Shown: positions 12,751-19,878 of the stretch, piece after piece
Layout of the letters: every line of letters starts with the position of its first letter
Position numbering within the stretch: the first letter of the stretch is position 1
Source of the DNA: Snodgrassella alvi
GTDB taxonomy: Bacteria > Pseudomonadota > Gammaproteobacteria > Burkholderiales > Neisseriaceae
NCBI RefSeq assembly: GCF_002777855.1
Contig: NZ_MEIK01000028.1
Location: 62,001-126,000 of the forward strand
DNA: 64,000 nucleotides
Direction of reading: 5' to 3'
Translations under genes and position numbers: made by a program
Notes under the pieces: generated by a model
The model's input: the letters and a program-made list of their open reading frames with translations, nothing else
The model's database searches: none
What the model was told of the DNA's origin: nothing

Positions 12751-14364
12751 TCAGTTTTTTATTTGTTCCCAACTTATATCATATTTAGCCAGATATTTTT
12801 TCAGTCTGTCAGCATCATTGGCACGCTGTTTCTGCGCTCGTGACACCGCAAACAGATAGCGACCCGCTTCAGATAAAGTTCGGCTTTTGCGGCATACTTC
12901 CAGCACTTTTTCCAGTTGATAGCGGTCAAATTCATCTAATTCAGCTGGAATCAGCGCATCCCTAGAAGTGTTTTGCTGCCAATGTTGCTGTAAACGCTGA
13001 ATTTCATCTTCAACCTGTACCAAAGTAATATTTCCTTGGGTGGCTAACGTCGCCATGCGGGTAATGGAAGCTGTAAGCTCGCGGAAATTGCCTGTCCACA
13101 GAGCAGTAGCCGACGTGGCAAAATTCACATAACGGCTTCTAGATTGCTGATTAAAGCGCGGCATGGTGCCATATTCCTGTGCAAAGCGCGCCAGCTCAAA
13201 ATCGATATTCGGCTCAATGTCTTCCTTGCGTTCCGCTAGACCAGGCAATTGATAGCTCCATAAATTAATGCGTGCGTATAAATCCTCCCTAAACTTACCT
13301 GCCGCAATAGCCTGCTTTAAATCTTTATTGGTACCGGCTATCAACTGAAACTGACTGGATACCAGCTTATCCGATCCGAGCGGATAAAATTGTTTTTCCT
13401 CAATCGCTTTCAGCAGAATAGCCTGCTCATCCAGCCCCAGTTCGCCAATTTCATCCATAAACAACAAACCATTATCCGCCTGTTTCAGTAAACCGCTTCT
13501 GGCCGTACTGGCACCCGTATACGCCCCTTTGCTGTGACCGAACAAAGTAGACATCGCATTATCGCCGCTCAGCGTAGCACAATTAATTTCCACAAACTGC
13601 CCGCTTAACTGATGTTGATTCAGCTTAAGCTGGTAAATTTGCTTAGCCAGAAATGATTTACCCGCACCAGTAGGGCCACACAGCAGAATAGGCGCATGCG
13701 AACGGCTGGCCACCTGTTCTATTTCAGTAATTAACTGATTGTAATGTTGATTTCGCGTGGCAATACCAGATTTAAGTAACTCAGTCGCCTGACTGGCATA
13801 CTGCTGGAAACGCGTCAAAATCTGGTCGTAGCGGTGCAGATTCAAATCAATAATATTAACTTGCCCTCTGCTGCACAGATGCTGGTGTTCTTCAGCTACA
13901 GACAACACATTTTCCGCCTTGGCTGTATTTTTTTCAGGTGGGGAAGATTGCAACAATCTAGCCGGATAAAAGCGTGATTCAGCCAACAAAAACCAGCAAA
14001 TCTGCATCACATGCGTACCAGTTGTGATATTTAAAAAATAATTTTCTTCTTCAGTATCAAATTTATAACCCTTAGCTAAATCCAATAGATAGGTATATAC
14101 CTCTTCAAAGTCCCACGGGTCGCTTATCCGTACCTCAACCGGATTTACCTGAGTCAGCGGCGCAATAGTGTGAATATCCTGCACAATTTCAGTCAGTAAT
14201 CTCTTATCACAGGTTTTATACAACAGCTCAAGGCGTGAAACCGGCAATTCTGGATGATTGCAGACATCAACCGTTGGCCGCCAACGCCCCCAGCGTTTTC
14301 TCCCCTTGCCGCGCTGGTCTAGAACATTACCCAAAAAGCCAAAAACAACGTTTCTCTTATTCAT
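12751..14364 (-). CDS. rtcR: RtcR, CARF-domain sigma-54 activator of the RNA repair operon
   Basis: Enhancer-binding activator that turns on the rtc operon when damaged RNA is sensed. Residues 1-185 form the RtcR/CARF sensory domain (FGFLGNVLDQR at the start, NITTGTHVMQ near 112-121). The AAA+ domain follows, with Walker A GPTGAGKS (230-237), the sigma-54 contact loop as GAYTGA (280-285) and Walker B LLFMDE (300-305). The C-terminus has a short helix-turn-helix region. At 537 residues it matches E. coli RtcR (532). It is transcribed away from a sigma-54 promoter 160 bases upstream that leads to slipin and rtcB. In Salmonella RtcR is known to respond to tRNA fragments; the same ligand class is inferred here. 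Confidence 0.95.
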   Translation of the reverse strand: MNKRNVVFGFLGNVLDQRGKGRKRWGRWRPTVDVCNHPELPVSRLELLYKTCDKRLLTEIVQDIHTIAPLTQVNPVEVRISDPWDFEEVYTYLLDLAKGYKFDTEEENYFLNITTGTHVMQICWFLLAESRFYPARLLQSSPPEKNTAKAENVLSVAEEHQHLCSRGQVNIIDLNLHRYDQILTRFQQYASQATELLKSGIATRNQHYNQLITEIEQVASRSHAPILLCGPTGAGKSFLAKQIYQLKLNQHQLSGQFVEINCATLSGDNAMSTLFGHSKGAYTGASTARSGLLKQADNGLLFMDEIGELGLDEQAILLKAIEEKQFYPLGSDKLVSSQFQLIAGTNKDLKQAIAAGKFREDLYARINLWSYQLPGLAERKEDIEPNIDFELARFAQEYGTMPRFNQQSRSRYVNFATSATALWTGNFRELTASITRMATLATQGNITLVQVEDEIQRLQQHWQQNTSRDALIPAELDEFDRYQLEKVLEVCRKSRTLSEAGRYLFAVSRAQKQRANDADRLKKYLAKYDISWEQIKN

Positions 14365-14524: not shown

Positions 14525-14541
14525 TTGGTACAGAAATTGCA
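14525..14541 (+). promoter_or_regulatory. Sigma-54 (-24/-12) promoter of the rtc operon
   Basis: TTGGTACAGAAATTGCA matches the consensus TGGYAC-N5-TTGCA exactly, with GG at 14527-14528, GC at 14539-14540 and ten bases between them. Predicted transcription starts about 12 bases after the GC, near 14552. RtcR is encoded divergently next to it. Confidence 0.92.
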
Positions 14542-14551
14542 ATAAGAATGG

Positions 14552-14665
14552 TGTCTGTCATACAGACTGTCTGATAGGGCAGTCAGGTGCATAGCGAATG
14601 TAGCCAGAAAGGGAATAAACCAGTTCAGTTGCATTATCAACATGTATTCCTGCGTAGAACAGACA
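14552..14665 (+). ncRNA. Candidate structured RNA with paired ends (Y-RNA-like) at the head of the rtc transcript
   Basis: The predicted start of the sigma-54 transcript falls on TGTCTGT (14552-14558), complementary to ACAGACA at 14659-14665, so a 114-nucleotide RNA could close on its own ends. Inside, GGAATA (14612-14617) pairs with TATTCC (14645-14650) and encloses a GTTG/CAAC hairpin (14628-14641). A competing local hairpin GTCTGT-CAT-ACAGAC (14553-14567) is also possible. There is no credible open frame. Salmonella carries Y RNAs in its rsr-yrlBA-rtcBA operon; this element has the same place and the end-pairing, but I could not match the Ro-binding sequence and no Ro gene is in the window. 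Confidence 0.6.
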
Positions 14666-14684
14666 ACTCCCTTTAACGGAGAAT

Positions 14685-14756
14685 ATTTGAATAGCTCACT
14701 GGTAGAGCAATTGGAACTGATCCAATTTGTAGCAGGTTCGATTCCTGTTTCAAATC
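14685..14756 (+). ncRNA. tRNA-like RNA in the rtc operon leader (anticodon position CTG, no U33)
   Basis: A full cloverleaf can be drawn. Acceptor ATTTGAA (14685-14691) pairs with TTCAAAT (14749-14755); D arm GCTC/GAGC has a GG-containing loop; anticodon stem is ATTGG/CCAAT; variable region TTGTA; T arm GCAGG/CCTGT has the canonical loop TTCGATT. The anticodon loop is AACTGAT, so the Gln-type CTG is present but the universal T33 is A, and A32 with T38 could extend the stem to leave a five-base loop. No CCA is encoded (CCT follows). It is therefore a tRNA mimic or a decayed tRNA-Gln rather than a decoding tRNA. It lies between the sigma-54 promoter and slipin, so it is probably induced with rtcB. 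Confidence 0.75.
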
Positions 14757-14848
14757 CTTGTCATAAAACTTTGTTGTAAAAAGCAATACCAGCCAGTAAA
14801 CAGCAATAAGCTAGTAGTTAAAGCTTAGGCACAGGAAAAACCGCTTAA

Positions 14849-14896
14849 CCGGACAAAATCAGCTTAAGATGATTTATCCGGATAAAAAAACCGGAT
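14849..14896 (+). promoter_or_regulatory. Mutually exclusive hairpins in the slipin leader
   Basis: TCCGG (14877-14881) can pair either upstream with CCGGA (14849-14853), reinforced by AAATCA/TGATTT (14856-14861 with 14870-14875), or downstream as ATCCGG/CCGGAT (14876-14881 with 14891-14896) across an A-rich loop. The two folds cannot coexist. This could control RNA processing or expression of slipin-rtcB relative to the upstream RNAs; the function is inferred. Confidence 0.45.
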
Positions 14897-15032
14897 AGCA
14901 GGCAAAAAATTAAAAAAGCATAAACAGGCAGTTTCTAGCTTATGCAGCTTAATCTTTCCCCTGTTATTTCGTTACTTAATCCGTTTGAATGTGTTCATTC
15001 TGTTTACTGGCTGCCTCAACAGGAGAATTAAA

Positions 15033-16610
15033 ATGTTTACCATCATAAATGTAAAAAAGGGTGAACTGGCCATAGTCAGTAAACGCGGAGAGATTGATAA
15101 CATCATCACCGCAGGCCGTCATTATTTTTGGAATCCCTTTTCCGTACTAACCTTTACACAGGTAGATTTGGCTGATACACAAATCGAGCCAGACACCGCC
15201 AACAAACTCATCAATTTTTATCCACAACTGGTAGAAAAATATTGTCATCACGTCAGCCTCGCAGAGGATGAAATTGGCCTGCGCTATGAGGAAGACAAAC
15301 TAGTAGAAATAATAATGCCCACTACCAAAACAGTGTACTGGCAGAGTTATAAACCACAATTACTAAAAAAAGTTACCTTGCAACAAGGTTACCGCTTGCC
15401 GGATGAAATAGCTCAAGAGCTGATACAGGCTAAAAATACCGGCAAAGTAATAAAAGGCTTAAATAATCTAATCCTGCATAATTTTACCGACGAAGAAATA
15501 GGTACCCTGTTTGTGGATAACCAATTTGTGCAGATTATTCCGCCTAAATCAGTATTCGGCATGTGTGAATTTAAACATAAACTGATACTGGGCAAATTCA
15601 AATTACAGGATAGCCGCATTAACGACGTACTGGCGGCATCAATAGAGCAGAACGCACCAGCACAAATGGCACAATTTTGCGTGCAGATGCAGGTGGGCGC
15701 CAATCAGGTCGGCCTACGATTCGAAGATGATTTATTGGTAGAAATCCTGCCACCGGGTACCAAACGCCTATATTGGCAGAATAACTGCAAACAACACATG
15801 CAGACCATAGAACTAAGCGATGGCTATCAATTGTCTGAACAAATGGTGCAGCAGCTATTACAGCCCAAATTGCGCCAAAAAGAAGTGCAGGGAGACAGCA
15901 GTGTACTGATTGCCCAAATACCGGCCTATCACCTTGGCGTACTGAAAGTAAATGGCAAAGTGGAAAAACTGCTGGATGCCGGTATCACCGCCTACTGGCG
16001 TTTTAACCGTGAAATCAGCGTTGACATCGTCGATACACGCTTGCAGACCAAAGAAATATCCGGTCAGGAAATACTCACCCGCGATAAAGTCAATCTGCGT
16101 ATCAATCTAGTGGCCAACTGGTACTACACCGATGTATTAACCGCCTATGCCAAAGTTGCACAGCCGACGGATTTGTTGTACCGACAACTGCAATTTGCAC
16201 TGCGCGAAGCGATTGGCACACGCACACTGGATGAATTACTGGAAAACAAAACAGTAATCGATGAAGTAATTAACGCTCATATGCAAACCAGTATGGCTGG
16301 CTATGGCATCGAAACAGTTAGTGTCGGCGTCAAAGACATCATACTACCGGGAGACATGAAAATCATACTTTCGCAGGTAGTGGAAGCAGAAAAAGCGGCA
16401 CAGGCCAATGTCATTCGCCGGCGTGAAGAAACTTCCGCCACCCGCTCCCTGCTCAATACCGCCCGCGTAATGGAAAACAATCCAGTGGCCTTGCGTTTAA
16501 AAGAAATGGAAACACTCGAACGAATCGCCGAACGCATTAACAAAATTTCCGTAGTTGGCGGACTGGATCAGATATTGCATGGATTAATCAATATCCAACC
16601 AAAAATATAG
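15033..16610 (+). CDS. Slipin / SPFH (band 7) family protein with five copies of an N-terminal beta motif
   Basis: A 525-residue SPFH protein encoded between RtcR and RtcB. The C-terminal part (about 293-470) is the SPFH domain, with NREISVDIVDTRLQT and the following LANWYYTDVLTAY segment. A short motif of the form G-x-(V/L)-x(3,5)-(V/I)-x-x-I-x-x-(A/P)-G-x-x-x-Y-W occurs five times, at about residues 11-34, 80-103, 155-179, 226-249 and 300-323. This suggests serial duplication of the family's leading beta hairpin. No membrane helix is evident, unlike classical slipins. Start at 15033 has CAGGAG upstream; a start at 14985 adds 16 residues. Band-7 proteins are known partners in RtcB operons; their role in RNA repair is unresolved. 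Confidence 0.85.
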   Translation: MFTIINVKKGELAIVSKRGEIDNIITAGRHYFWNPFSVLTFTQVDLADTQIEPDTANKLINFYPQLVEKYCHHVSLAEDEIGLRYEEDKLVEIIMPTTKTVYWQSYKPQLLKKVTLQQGYRLPDEIAQELIQAKNTGKVIKGLNNLILHNFTDEEIGTLFVDNQFVQIIPPKSVFGMCEFKHKLILGKFKLQDSRINDVLAASIEQNAPAQMAQFCVQMQVGANQVGLRFEDDLLVEILPPGTKRLYWQNNCKQHMQTIELSDGYQLSEQMVQQLLQPKLRQKEVQGDSSVLIAQIPAYHLGVLKVNGKVEKLLDAGITAYWRFNREISVDIVDTRLQTKEISGQEILTRDKVNLRINLVANWYYTDVLTAYAKVAQPTDLLYRQLQFALREAIGTRTLDELLENKTVIDEVINAHMQTSMAGYGIETVSVGVKDIILPGDMKIILSQVVEAEKAAQANVIRRREETSATRSLLNTARVMENNPVALRLKEMETLERIAERINKISVVGGLDQILHGLINIQPKI

Positions 16611-16668: not shown

Positions 16669-17889
16669 ATGACTCAATATAATTTGTTACAAGCGGAAAA
16701 TGCAAAACCAATCAAAATGTGGACACAAGGCGTATCAGTCGAAGATGAAGCCAAAAACCAGCTAATCAAAACAGCCCAATTACCATTTATCTTTAAACAT
16801 ATTGCCGTCATGCCCGATGTCCATATCGGTAAAGGTTCAACAATAGGAAGTGTTATCCCAACCATGGGCGCAATTATTCCGGCAGCCGTGGGCGTGGATA
16901 TCGGCTGTGGCATGATTGCTGTACAAACTTCTTTAGTGGCAACTGATTTGCCCGATAATTTATTGCCTTTGCGTCAAGTTATCGAAAAAGCCGTGCCACA
17001 TGGCATGACCCCCAAATACCGCGGACGAGATAACGGTAGCTGGCAAAATCCACCACCAATTGTCAATCAATACTGGCAGCAACTGTTACCGGGTTTTGAA
17101 AAATTAACCGCAAAATATCCACGCTTCTTAAAAACGAAGAATCACAAACATCTAGGTACACTGGGTACCGGCAACCATTTTATCGAAATCTGTCTCGATG
17201 AAACCGATAGCGTGTGGATAATGTTGCATAGCGGTTCACGAGGCATAGGCAATACTATCGGCAACTTTTTTATCGAATTGGCTAAAAAAGATATGGAAGT
17301 GCATATCAGAAATCTACCCGATATAGATCTGGCTTATCTTCAGGAAGGGACAGAGCATTTTCAAGATTATGTTGAGGCCGTACATTGGGCACAGGAATTT
17401 GCGAGGCTAAACCGTGAAGCCATGATGCATAACGTTATCGCAGCAATGCGCAAAATCATTACCAAACCATTTACCACCCATCTATCCGCAGTAAATTGCC
17501 ACCACAACTACGTGCAAAAAGAACAGCATTTTGGTGATGAGATTTTTATTACCCGTAAAGGGGCAGTATCAGCGCGTAAAGGCGAACTAGGCATCATACC
17601 CGGTTCAATGGGCGCCAAAAGCTATATCGTGCGAGGATTAGGTAATGAAGAAAGTTTTTGCTCTTGTTCACATGGAGCAGGAAGAATAATGAGCCGAACC
17701 GATGCAAAAAAGCAATTTACCATAGACGACCAAATCAAAGCCACCGCCCATGTTGAATGCCGTAAAGACGCAGACGTAATTGATGAAATACCAATGGCTT
17801 ACAAAGATATCGATGCCGTCATGACCGCCCAAAAAGAACTAGTGGAAATCGTGCATCAATTACGGCAGGTAGTGTGCGTAAAAGGATAA
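16669..17889 (+). CDS. rtcB: RNA-splicing ligase RtcB
   Basis: GTP- and Mn-dependent ligase joining 2',3'-cyclic phosphate or 3'-phosphate ends to 5'-OH ends, used to heal cleaved tRNAs and rRNA. The 406-residue product (E. coli 408) has metal-site motifs MPDVHIGKG and GVDIGCGM (the Cys is a Mn ligand), GTGNHFIE, LHSGSRGIG, and the guanylylation motif SHGAGRIMSR with the catalytic His. It follows slipin after 58 bases in the sigma-54 operon. No rtcA (cyclase) follows, so ends that must be recyclised would depend on another route. Confidence 0.97.
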   Translation: MTQYNLLQAENAKPIKMWTQGVSVEDEAKNQLIKTAQLPFIFKHIAVMPDVHIGKGSTIGSVIPTMGAIIPAAVGVDIGCGMIAVQTSLVATDLPDNLLPLRQVIEKAVPHGMTPKYRGRDNGSWQNPPPIVNQYWQQLLPGFEKLTAKYPRFLKTKNHKHLGTLGTGNHFIEICLDETDSVWIMLHSGSRGIGNTIGNFFIELAKKDMEVHIRNLPDIDLAYLQEGTEHFQDYVEAVHWAQEFARLNREAMMHNVIAAMRKIITKPFTTHLSAVNCHHNYVQKEQHFGDEIFITRKGAVSARKGELGIIPGSMGAKSYIVRGLGNEESFCSCSHGAGRIMSRTDAKKQFTIDDQIKATAHVECRKDADVIDEIPMAYKDIDAVMTAQKELVEIVHQLRQVVCVKG

Positions 17890-18426: not shown

Positions 18427-19878
18427 ATGACTCAGTCTAATATAAAACTAAAAATCTATTTTACCGATTTCTTCAATGTAGATAAGTCAGAATTAGAAAA
18501 TTATGGAGCGTTTAATATCTCATTAATAAATGATTTACCATTATTTGTAGACCCTTTTTTATTATTTAATAGTGAAAATTCGCAGTACAAATCTCTACAT
18601 GAATCAATGATTAAATATATAGGTTTTTTAAAATATAAAATTCTGGCAAAAGAAGGGAAATTTTCTAATAATGAGATTAAAGCTTGGTTTATGTTTAACG
18701 AGGTTCAACAAAATTGGTTAGGTTATAGTTGCGTGGGAAATAGAGGTAGAGGTTTAAATAGAGCGTTTGCTAACACTTTGATTGATAGTTTTATTAATAA
18801 CTCAAGTGATTTTAAAGAAAACGATATAACACAAGGTCTTCATCCCGAAAAACTTTGTCTTATAAAAGATGGTACAGGAAAAGATAGTGTTAGTGATTTA
18901 ACGGTTAATTTAATAAAAAAATTTCTTCTAGAGTATACGCAAACGTTTGCAGAAAAATATATTTCCGAAGATAAATTAAAGGAATTTACAGTTGAAAAAG
19001 TAGAATTTAATTATGATACTGAAACTTGGCAAGCAAAAAAATATATATTACCGAAATTTGAAGAGGAATATGTTCTATTAACTCCAAAAAATATTCTAAC
19101 TAAAGATGAAAGTTGGATTAATAAAAAAGAAATGATAGGAGATTTTTCTAATATATGTTCTTCTATATCAAATGTAGAACTAAGAGCAAAATTGGAAAAA
19201 TATGTCAATGACATTTTACCAGAAAATTATAATGCACAAGAATGGGGAAAAGCTGTAAAACAAACTATTGAGAAATTTCCTGAATTTATTGACTATTTTA
19301 TTAAAATGAAAGAGATCGATGGTAAGGAAGCTCATATTCGAAGTGATTTAAAAATTAGAGAAACTCAAGAAATATTTATTGGATTAGTATCTAATTTAGT
19401 AGAAGCACTATATCATTATACAAATTTTTATCAACAGTCATATGATACTTTGAAAGATACTTATCAAAGAATAATATTTCTAAAGGATATTATTGAAAAT
19501 AAGGATGAATTTAAGCTTTCTTACCAAAATAAATTAATTAAAAAAGAATCAGATTTACAACTTTTATTAAGATTAATTTGGTTTGTTAGACCTTCTTATG
19601 TTGATAATGATATAAAAATTGATTTAAATACATTGGATTATGAAAATTCTCGATCATCTAAAGGTAAAATGTTAGTTGAATTTAAATTGGCTAATAATAA
19701 AAAACTTAAACAAAGTTTAAAAAATCAGATTAAAAAATATGGAAAGGAAAATCTTAAATCCATAAAAGTTATTATATACTCTAGTTTTCCTGAATATGAT
19801 AAAGTAAAAAGAATTTTAAGGGAATTAAACTTAAAAGTTGGCAAAAATATTGTTTTAATTAATGCAATTCCAGAATAA
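18427..19878 (+). CDS. Uncharacterised AT-rich protein with C-terminal PD-(D/E)XK-like motif
   Basis: I do not recognise this 483-residue protein as a named family. It begins KIYFTDFFNVDKSELENYG and NDLPLFVDPFLLF, a pattern I associate with standalone hypothetical proteins. Near the C-terminus a basic Ser/Lys-rich turn precedes LVEFKLANNKKL (Glu418, Lys420) with acidic residues upstream at 399-405, followed by a Q-x-x-K-Y helix. That is the layout of PD-(D/E)XK nucleases. There are no membrane segments. AAAGGAG supports the start. Base composition is far more AT-rich than its neighbours, and it stands alone between AT-rich gaps, suggesting horizontal transfer. A defence nuclease is possible but unproven. 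Confidence 0.6.
   Translation: MTQSNIKLKIYFTDFFNVDKSELENYGAFNISLINDLPLFVDPFLLFNSENSQYKSLHESMIKYIGFLKYKILAKEGKFSNNEIKAWFMFNEVQQNWLGYSCVGNRGRGLNRAFANTLIDSFINNSSDFKENDITQGLHPEKLCLIKDGTGKDSVSDLTVNLIKKFLLEYTQTFAEKYISEDKLKEFTVEKVEFNYDTETWQAKKYILPKFEEEYVLLTPKNILTKDESWINKKEMIGDFSNICSSISNVELRAKLEKYVNDILPENYNAQEWGKAVKQTIEKFPEFIDYFIKMKEIDGKEAHIRSDLKIRETQEIFIGLVSNLVEALYHYTNFYQQSYDTLKDTYQRIIFLKDIIENKDEFKLSYQNKLIKKESDLQLLLRLIWFVRPSYVDNDIKIDLNTLDYENSRSSKGKMLVEFKLANNKKLKQSLKNQIKKYGKENLKSIKVIIYSSFPEYDKVKRILRELNLKVGKNIVLINAIPE

What the first reader, a model, noticed from the sequence alone, without database searches (positions are those of the whole stretch)
14685..14756. tRNA-like RNA with a defective anticodon loop (CTG, no U33)
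All four stems and the T-loop consensus are intact, but the loop is AACTGAT, so position 33 is A and 32/38 can pair. It resembles tRNA-Gln(CUG) made unable to decode. It may be a decoy or reporter substrate for the nucleases and ligase of the repair system, or the product whose fragments RtcR senses.
Basis: partly seen in the sequence, partly recalled or inferred. Interest (0 to 1): 0.75.

Follow-up and report, generated by a model that had tools for sequence, protein, structure and literature searches.

The report
tRNA-like leader RNA of RNA-repair operon
The feature is a real tRNA-shaped, probably non-decoding RNA in the 5' leader of an RtcR-controlled slipin–RtcB RNA-repair operon; relatives sit in the same place across many bacteria and most likely act as an RNA partner of that repair system rather than as a tRNA used in translation.

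Summary
Window 14685-14757 folds as a complete cloverleaf (Rfam tRNA 49.2 bits, the lowest of 58 in its genome) with anticodon loop AACTGAT: no U33, and 32/38 can pair. It is not a broken tRNA-Gln. The genome has normal tRNA-Gln genes, and this RNA is closer to tRNA-Lys and tRNA-Gly. It lies between divergent rtcR and slipin–rtcB, 144 nt downstream of a sigma54 -24/-12 box, inside a ~480-nt leader that shows covariation along most of its length. The T-arm motif occurs upstream of slipin in 62/62 non-redundant loci tested (expected 0.008 per locus) and in 21/22 further Pseudomonadota loci. About 30% of complete E. coli genomes carry an E. coli version of leader plus slipin. Most deeper relatives have two abutting tRNA-like units; Enterobacterales keep an acceptor–T minihelix, bee-gut bacteria one full cloverleaf. 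The anticodon loop is the most variable part and is a GAAA tetraloop in two Burkholderia, so decoding is not the conserved function. Best reading: a tRNA-mimicking RNA partner of slipin, analogous to Y RNA with Ro60. A Band-7-associated 'tRNA-like molecule' was, from memory, predicted in 2016 (paper not held). Decoy or sensor roles remain possible and untested.

The parts
14526..14541 (+). sigma54 -24/-12 promoter element TGGTACAGAAATTGCA; predicted transcription start about 14551-14553
   Evidence: Scores 14 of 15.5 against the consensus. In 62 loci, 60 sites scoring at least 13.5 lie in the leaders, against 0.023 expected per 650 nt.
12751..14364 (-). rtcR: CARF-type regulator with sigma54-activator domain, divergent from the operon
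   Evidence: Pfam RtcR PF06956 (4e-71) and Sigma54_activat PF00158; divergent rtcR next to slipin in most relatives.
14553..14667 (+). 5' domain of the leader RNA (hairpin plus GGTGCAT/ATGTATTCC helix)
   Evidence: Helices 1 and 2 of alignment A2: pairs kept 97-98%, compensatory changes.
14667..14681 (+). short hairpin CTCC-CTTTAAC-GGAG at the place where unit 1 of tandem relatives lies; remnant status is inference
   Evidence: Centroid fold of the leader; relatives with unit 1 at this position.
14685..14757 (+). tRNA-like cloverleaf, non-decoding anticodon loop AACTGAT (about 14715-14721)
   Evidence: covariation in D, anticodon and T stems; anticodon loop identity 0.44 against 0.77-0.95 for the other parts.
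14780..15018 (+). 3' domain of the leader RNA: long closing stem and internal hairpins
   Evidence: Helices 7-13 of A2, with many pairs changed on both sides; no Rfam family.
14886..14985 (+). core 3' hairpin ACCGGATAGCAGGCAAAA...TTTCCCCTGTTATTTCGT, shared with Enterobacterales leaders
   Evidence: 9 of 13 pairs with two-sided changes over 27 sequences. Model R1 finds it in Enterobacterales leaders; the only match in 274 class genomes is this locus.
15033..16610 (+). slipin (SPFH/Band_7 protein), 525 aa
   Evidence: Pfam Band_7 2.4e-28.
16669..17889 (+). rtcB RNA ligase
   Evidence: Pfam RtcB 3.5e-127.

Best explanation
The element is the tRNA-mimicking module of a structured noncoding leader RNA made with the slipin-rtcB operon when RtcR is activated through sigma54. 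It keeps the tRNA parts that tRNA-handling proteins grip (acceptor stem and D/T-loop elbow) but not a usable anticodon. The most likely role is as RNA partner or scaffold of the slipin, which as an SPFH protein is expected to form large rings. The tRNA-like fold would bring tRNA-binding enzymes or damaged-tRNA substrates to the repair system, as the tRNA-like domain of Y RNA does for Ro60/Rsr. Shown: structure, conservation, position, promoter sequence, non-decoding loop. Inferred: transcription, release of the RNA, binding to slipin, and what it recruits.
For: Divergent rtcR, tRNA-like RNA, slipin and usually rtcB keep their order over Neisseriaceae, Gilliamella, Burkholderiales and Enterobacterales. 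T-arms lie upstream of slipin in 62/62 loci and in 21/22 further Pseudomonadota loci. The unit stays with slipin when rtcB is not adjacent: E. coli has leader-slipin-RlaP, RlaP being an RNA-repair nucleotidyltransferase. The leader shows strong covariation. Elbow and acceptor are conserved while the anticodon loop drifts. Analogy: YrlA lies in the RtcR-regulated rsr-yrlBA-rtcBA operon (PMC7790460) and its tRNA-like domain binds PNPase (PMC8394870). In Anabaena, slipin, rtcB and a tRNA array share one stress-controlled repressor (PMC10272220).
Against: No expression or binding data. Slipin is not shown to bind RNA. Some distant relatives keep canonical CTNNNAA anticodon loops, which a pure scaffold would not need. 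The 3' domain is not found in deeper relatives. The signal may simply mark RNase P or RNase Z processing of the leader.
Confidence: 0.55

Rival explanations
1. Decoy: once RtcR is triggered by tRNA breakage, the cell makes a useless tRNA look-alike that absorbs tRNA-cutting toxins, and its loop changes as the attacking nucleases change.
For: The anticodon loop is the fastest-changing part (identity 0.44) and differs between sister species. Some relatives carry canonical loops. A competitive-inhibitor role was suggested for YrlA (PMC7790460).
Against: Enterobacterales relatives show no anticodon arm, L100 and L101 have a GAAA tetraloop, and two Gilliamella have 5-nt loops. In the bee-gut group U33 is about as frequent as random. 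YrlA was not cut in Salmonella.
Confidence: 0.17
2. Processing mark: RNase P and 3' trimming enzymes recognise the acceptor-T minihelix and cut the leader from the slipin-rtcB message, setting mRNA ends or stability.
For: The conserved minimum is an acceptor stem plus T-arm, the known minimal RNase P substrate (own knowledge). It lies within the leader, and no terminator-like site was found between it and slipin.
Against: It does not explain why D-arm, anticodon arm, two tandem units and a large covarying 3' domain are kept.
Confidence: 0.15
3. Feedback sensor: breaks in this RNA yield 2',3'-cyclic-phosphate fragments that bind the RtcR CARF domain and amplify the operon.
For: RtcR CARF binds tRNA halves ending in cyclic phosphate (PMC7790460).
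Against: The RNA is made from the promoter it would have to switch on. Relatives without an anticodon loop could not give such halves. Ordinary tRNA fragments suffice in Salmonella (PMC7790460).
Confidence: 0.07
4. Ordinary or recently decayed tRNA gene that happens to lie in the operon.
For: It scores as a tRNA; some distant relatives have U33 loops, and one of these also has an encoded CCA.
Against: Same position in more than 80 loci, changing 'anticodons', loops of other than 7 nt, normal tRNA-Gln elsewhere in the genome, compensatory changes in the stems.
Confidence: 0.03

Closest known systems
'Novel tRNA-like molecule' cognate to SPFH/Band-7 modules in RNA-repair systems (Burroughs & Aravind 2016, NAR, doi 10.1093/nar/gkw722; recalled from its abstract, paper not held)
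   Same: tRNA-like RNA associated with a Band-7 protein and RNA-repair genes; very probably the same kind.
   Different: The extent of what they described could not be checked. The window's single cloverleaf with a drifting anticodon loop, its sigma54 promoter, the tandem architecture and the covarying 5'/3' domains are documented here.
Bacterial Y RNA YrlA (Rfam RF02553) with Ro60/Rsr
   Same: tRNA-mimicking ncRNA in an RtcR-controlled RNA-repair operon; D and T arms mimicked, no decoding.
   Different: No Ro60/TROVE gene in this genome or in 47 slipin genomes. The window does not match RF02553. The YrlA model has a permuted arm order (T-arm before D-arm).
tmRNA tRNA-like domain
   Same: Acceptor plus T-arm without an anticodon arm resembles unit 1 of some relatives (L025 begins GGCGATGATTCTGG and ends CATCGTCACCA).
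   Different: No tmRNA match in Rfam for L025 or for the window leader; the window unit is a full cloverleaf.
Anabaena trn operon / TrcR regulon (PMC10272220)
   Same: Slipin, rtcB and a tRNA array are controlled together under translational stress.
   Different: 26 tRNA genes on a megaplasmid with a ribbon-helix-helix repressor, not RtcR/sigma54.

Membership tests
Elongator tRNA (tRNA-Gln CUG) | cloverleaf with intact D, anticodon and T arms | tested here: met
Elongator tRNA (tRNA-Gln CUG) | 7-nt anticodon loop with U33, conserved in orthologues | tested here: not met
   A33 in the window; 27 of 41 leader elements lack a 7-nt loop with U33
Elongator tRNA (tRNA-Gln CUG) | sequence related to tRNA-Gln or needed for the decoding set | tested here: not met
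   Real tRNA-Gln(ctg) and (ttg) genes present; 62-66% identity, below Lys and Gly at 73%
Elongator tRNA (tRNA-Gln CUG) | aminoacylation | not testable with these tools
   Needs bench work
Bacterial Y RNA (YrlA) | match to the family model | tested here: not met
   No RF02553 match in the window; tandem relatives L048 and L103 match below the cut-off (32.7 and 27.0 bits against 69)
Bacterial Y RNA (YrlA) | partner Ro60/Rsr (TROVE) protein | tested here: not met
   None in the own genome or in 47 slipin genomes
Bacterial Y RNA (YrlA) | tRNA elbow mimicry in an RtcR-controlled RNA-repair operon | tested here: met
   By sequence and position only
tmRNA | mRNA-like domain and pseudoknots around a tRNA-like domain | tested here: not met
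   No tmRNA call and no tmRNA family match in the leader
SPFH/Band-7-associated tRNA-like RNA (2016 prediction) | tRNA-like RNA next to a Band-7 gene of an RNA-repair system | tested here: met
SPFH/Band-7-associated tRNA-like RNA (2016 prediction) | physical association with the Band-7 protein | not testable with these tools
   Needs pull-down or CLIP

The most novel reading that the evidence does not exclude
Slipin-type repair loci encode a widespread family of dedicated tRNA dimers or mimics whose anticodon loop has been freed to change. They serve as inducible bait for tRNA-cutting toxins, or as docking RNA that couples damaged tRNAs to an SPFH ring and RtcB/RlaP. This would be a Ro60-free counterpart of Y RNA, present without RNA annotation in about a third of E. 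coli.
Probability: 0.3. Interest if true: 0.85.

Novelty: new variant of a known kind. Interest (0 to 1): 0.6.

Why it matters
RtcB-type repair is widespread in bacteria, but its helpers and true substrates are poorly known. A conserved tRNA mimic made from the same promoter as the ligase and a slipin gives a concrete, testable RNA component. It also warns that tRNA finders list these RNAs as tRNAs with misleading anticodons. Because a version occurs in 1,624 of 5,426 complete E. coli genomes, the idea can be tested in laboratory strains.

Tried and rejected
Derivation from tRNA-Gln: rejected, identity only 62% and real copies present. Y RNA with Ro60: no TROVE gene, no model match in the window. 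tmRNA: no match. Protein-coding leader: a 45-codon frame starts at a conserved ATG (window about 14641) and crosses the tRNA, but it ends after 3-20 codons in all 13 relatives. Phage origin: slipin and the leader have no match in 50,697 phage records. Other Rfam families in the leader: only chance-level matches. A covariance model of the 3' hairpin (R1) found Enterobacterales and bee-gut leaders but none of the deeper relatives, so the tRNA-like units are the more widely shared part. Mutual exclusion of slipin and Ro60: 0 of 47 against a base rate of 8 of 398 is too few to say.

Full report
What is there. ARAGORN and Rfam both find a tRNA at 14685-14757, plus strand. It folds as a cloverleaf. 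The anticodon loop reads AACTGAT, so U33 is missing and 32/38 can pair; no CCA is encoded. Among 58 tRNA matches in the genome it scores lowest (49.2 bits). The genome has its own tRNA-Gln(ctg) and tRNA-Gln(ttg) genes. The tRNA-like RNA is only 62-66% identical to them and 73% identical to tRNA-Lys and tRNA-Gly, so 'Gln' rests on the triplet alone.

Setting. The RNA lies between divergent rtcR (PF06956 plus sigma54 activator) and slipin (Band_7) followed by rtcB. A sigma54 -24/-12 element, TGGTACAGAAATTGCA, is at 14526-14541. The predicted transcript starts near 14552 and runs through the tRNA-like RNA into slipin (start position inferred from the element). No terminator-like site lies in between.

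Relatives. A slipin search of 84,980 species genomes gave 67 loci. In every locus with upstream sequence, apart from one cyanobacterial MAG, a T-arm motif GTTCRANTC lies 171-376 nt before slipin. In the 62 non-redundant loci used for the control this is 66 motifs in the leaders, against an expectation of 0.008 per leader; the sigma54 element gives 60 against 0.023 per leader. In an even sample of 398 Pseudomonadota, 23 genomes (the own genome included) have this slipin, and 21 of the other 22 have one to three T-arms upstream; the exception lies at a contig end. Burkholderia and Photobacterium show the same, and a Clostridia plasmid has two T-arms. In E. coli the leader and the start of slipin occur in 1,624 of 5,426 complete genomes. 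In the one inspected they are followed by RlaP, an RNA-repair nucleotidyltransferase, with no RNA feature annotated.

Architecture. The alignments suggest an ancestral pair of abutting units (inference). Unit 1 has a full acceptor, often ending ACCA, and runs straight into unit 2, which usually begins near GGATAGCTC with a short acceptor. Enterobacterales keep unit 1 as an acceptor–T minihelix with covarying acceptor strands (for example GCGAA/TTCGC, GCAAA/TTTGC, GTGAT/ATCAC; read by eye). Snodgrassella, Gilliamella and the window keep one full cloverleaf in the unit 2 position with a 7-bp acceptor.

Structure and conservation. On 14 bee-gut leaders, RNAalifold gives 99 pairs, 36 with compensatory changes. 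A shuffle control gives 22 on average (sd 2.3, 0/500 as high), and sliding the partners drops pairing from 96% to 31-45%. These counts treat related sequences as separate, so they overstate the number of independent events. D, anticodon and T stems each contain compensated pairs. A 3' hairpin is shared with Enterobacterales with 9 of 13 pairs compensated over 27 sequences. A model of it finds Enterobacterales leaders but not deeper relatives; in 274 class genomes its only match is this locus. The tRNA-like units are therefore the more widely shared part.

Not for decoding. Mean pairwise identity in the bee-gut group is 0.44 for the anticodon loop and 0.77-0.95 for every other part of the unit. 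ARAGORN labels sister species Trp, Arg, Pro, Asp, Gly or Gln. Of 41 leader elements parsed, 27 lack a 7-nt loop with U33. Two Burkholderia have GAAA tetraloops, two Gilliamella have 5-nt loops on inspection, and Enterobacterales show no anticodon arm. A minority of distant relatives keep canonical CTNNNAA loops, which argues against calling every member loop-dead.

Mechanism. Acceptor stem and D/T elbow persist and the anticodon does not. The conserved contact is therefore probably with proteins that read the elbow and acceptor (RNase P, RNase Z, CCA enzyme, TruB-like enzymes, or a repair-system protein). The RNA stays with slipin even where rtcB is not adjacent, so slipin is the best candidate partner. 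In Salmonella the RtcR-regulated operon carries Rsr and the tRNA-like YrlA instead (PMC7790460), and YrlA's tRNA-like domain binds PNPase (PMC8394870). In Anabaena, slipin, rtcB and a tRNA array are co-repressed by TrcR and released by translation stress (PMC10272220). From this I infer a slipin-partner tRNA mimic. Decoy, processing-mark and sensor readings are kept as rivals.

Known or new. From memory, the abstract of Burroughs & Aravind 2016 names SPFH/Band-7 modules with a 'novel tRNA-like molecule'; the paper could not be opened. The finding is therefore filed as a variant of that kind, not as a new class. Y RNA and tmRNA membership were tested and not met.

Noticed in passing
window 16669-17889: RtcB is about 90% identical to that of several Gilliamella and an uncultured Neisseriaceae (L006), but only 74% to Snodgrassella, although slipin and RtcR are closest to Snodgrassella: likely gene replacement or transfer between bee-gut bacteria.
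   Followed up: partly
L025:5603-5652: Unit 1 in Undibacterium resembles a tmRNA tRNA-like end (GGCGATGATTCTGG...CATCGTCACCA) and weakly matches the mascRNA model (23.5 bits).
   Followed up: partly
L048:5591-5697 and L103:3652-3753: Tandem tRNA-like units match the full-length YrlA model below its cut-off (32.7 and 27.0 bits). YrlA's permuted T-arm/D-arm order is the one found across the junction of two tandem units; a relation is speculative.
   Followed up: partly
L119:625-839: Three abutting tRNA-like units upstream of slipin (Ser aga, undefined, Thr agt by ARAGORN).
   Followed up: no
L104:3690-3740: A Clostridia (Subdoligranulum) plasmid slipin has two T-arm hairpins 24 nt apart upstream, a possible Firmicutes form.
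   Followed up: no
window 18427-19878: A 483-aa protein downstream of rtcB has no Pfam match.
   Followed up: no
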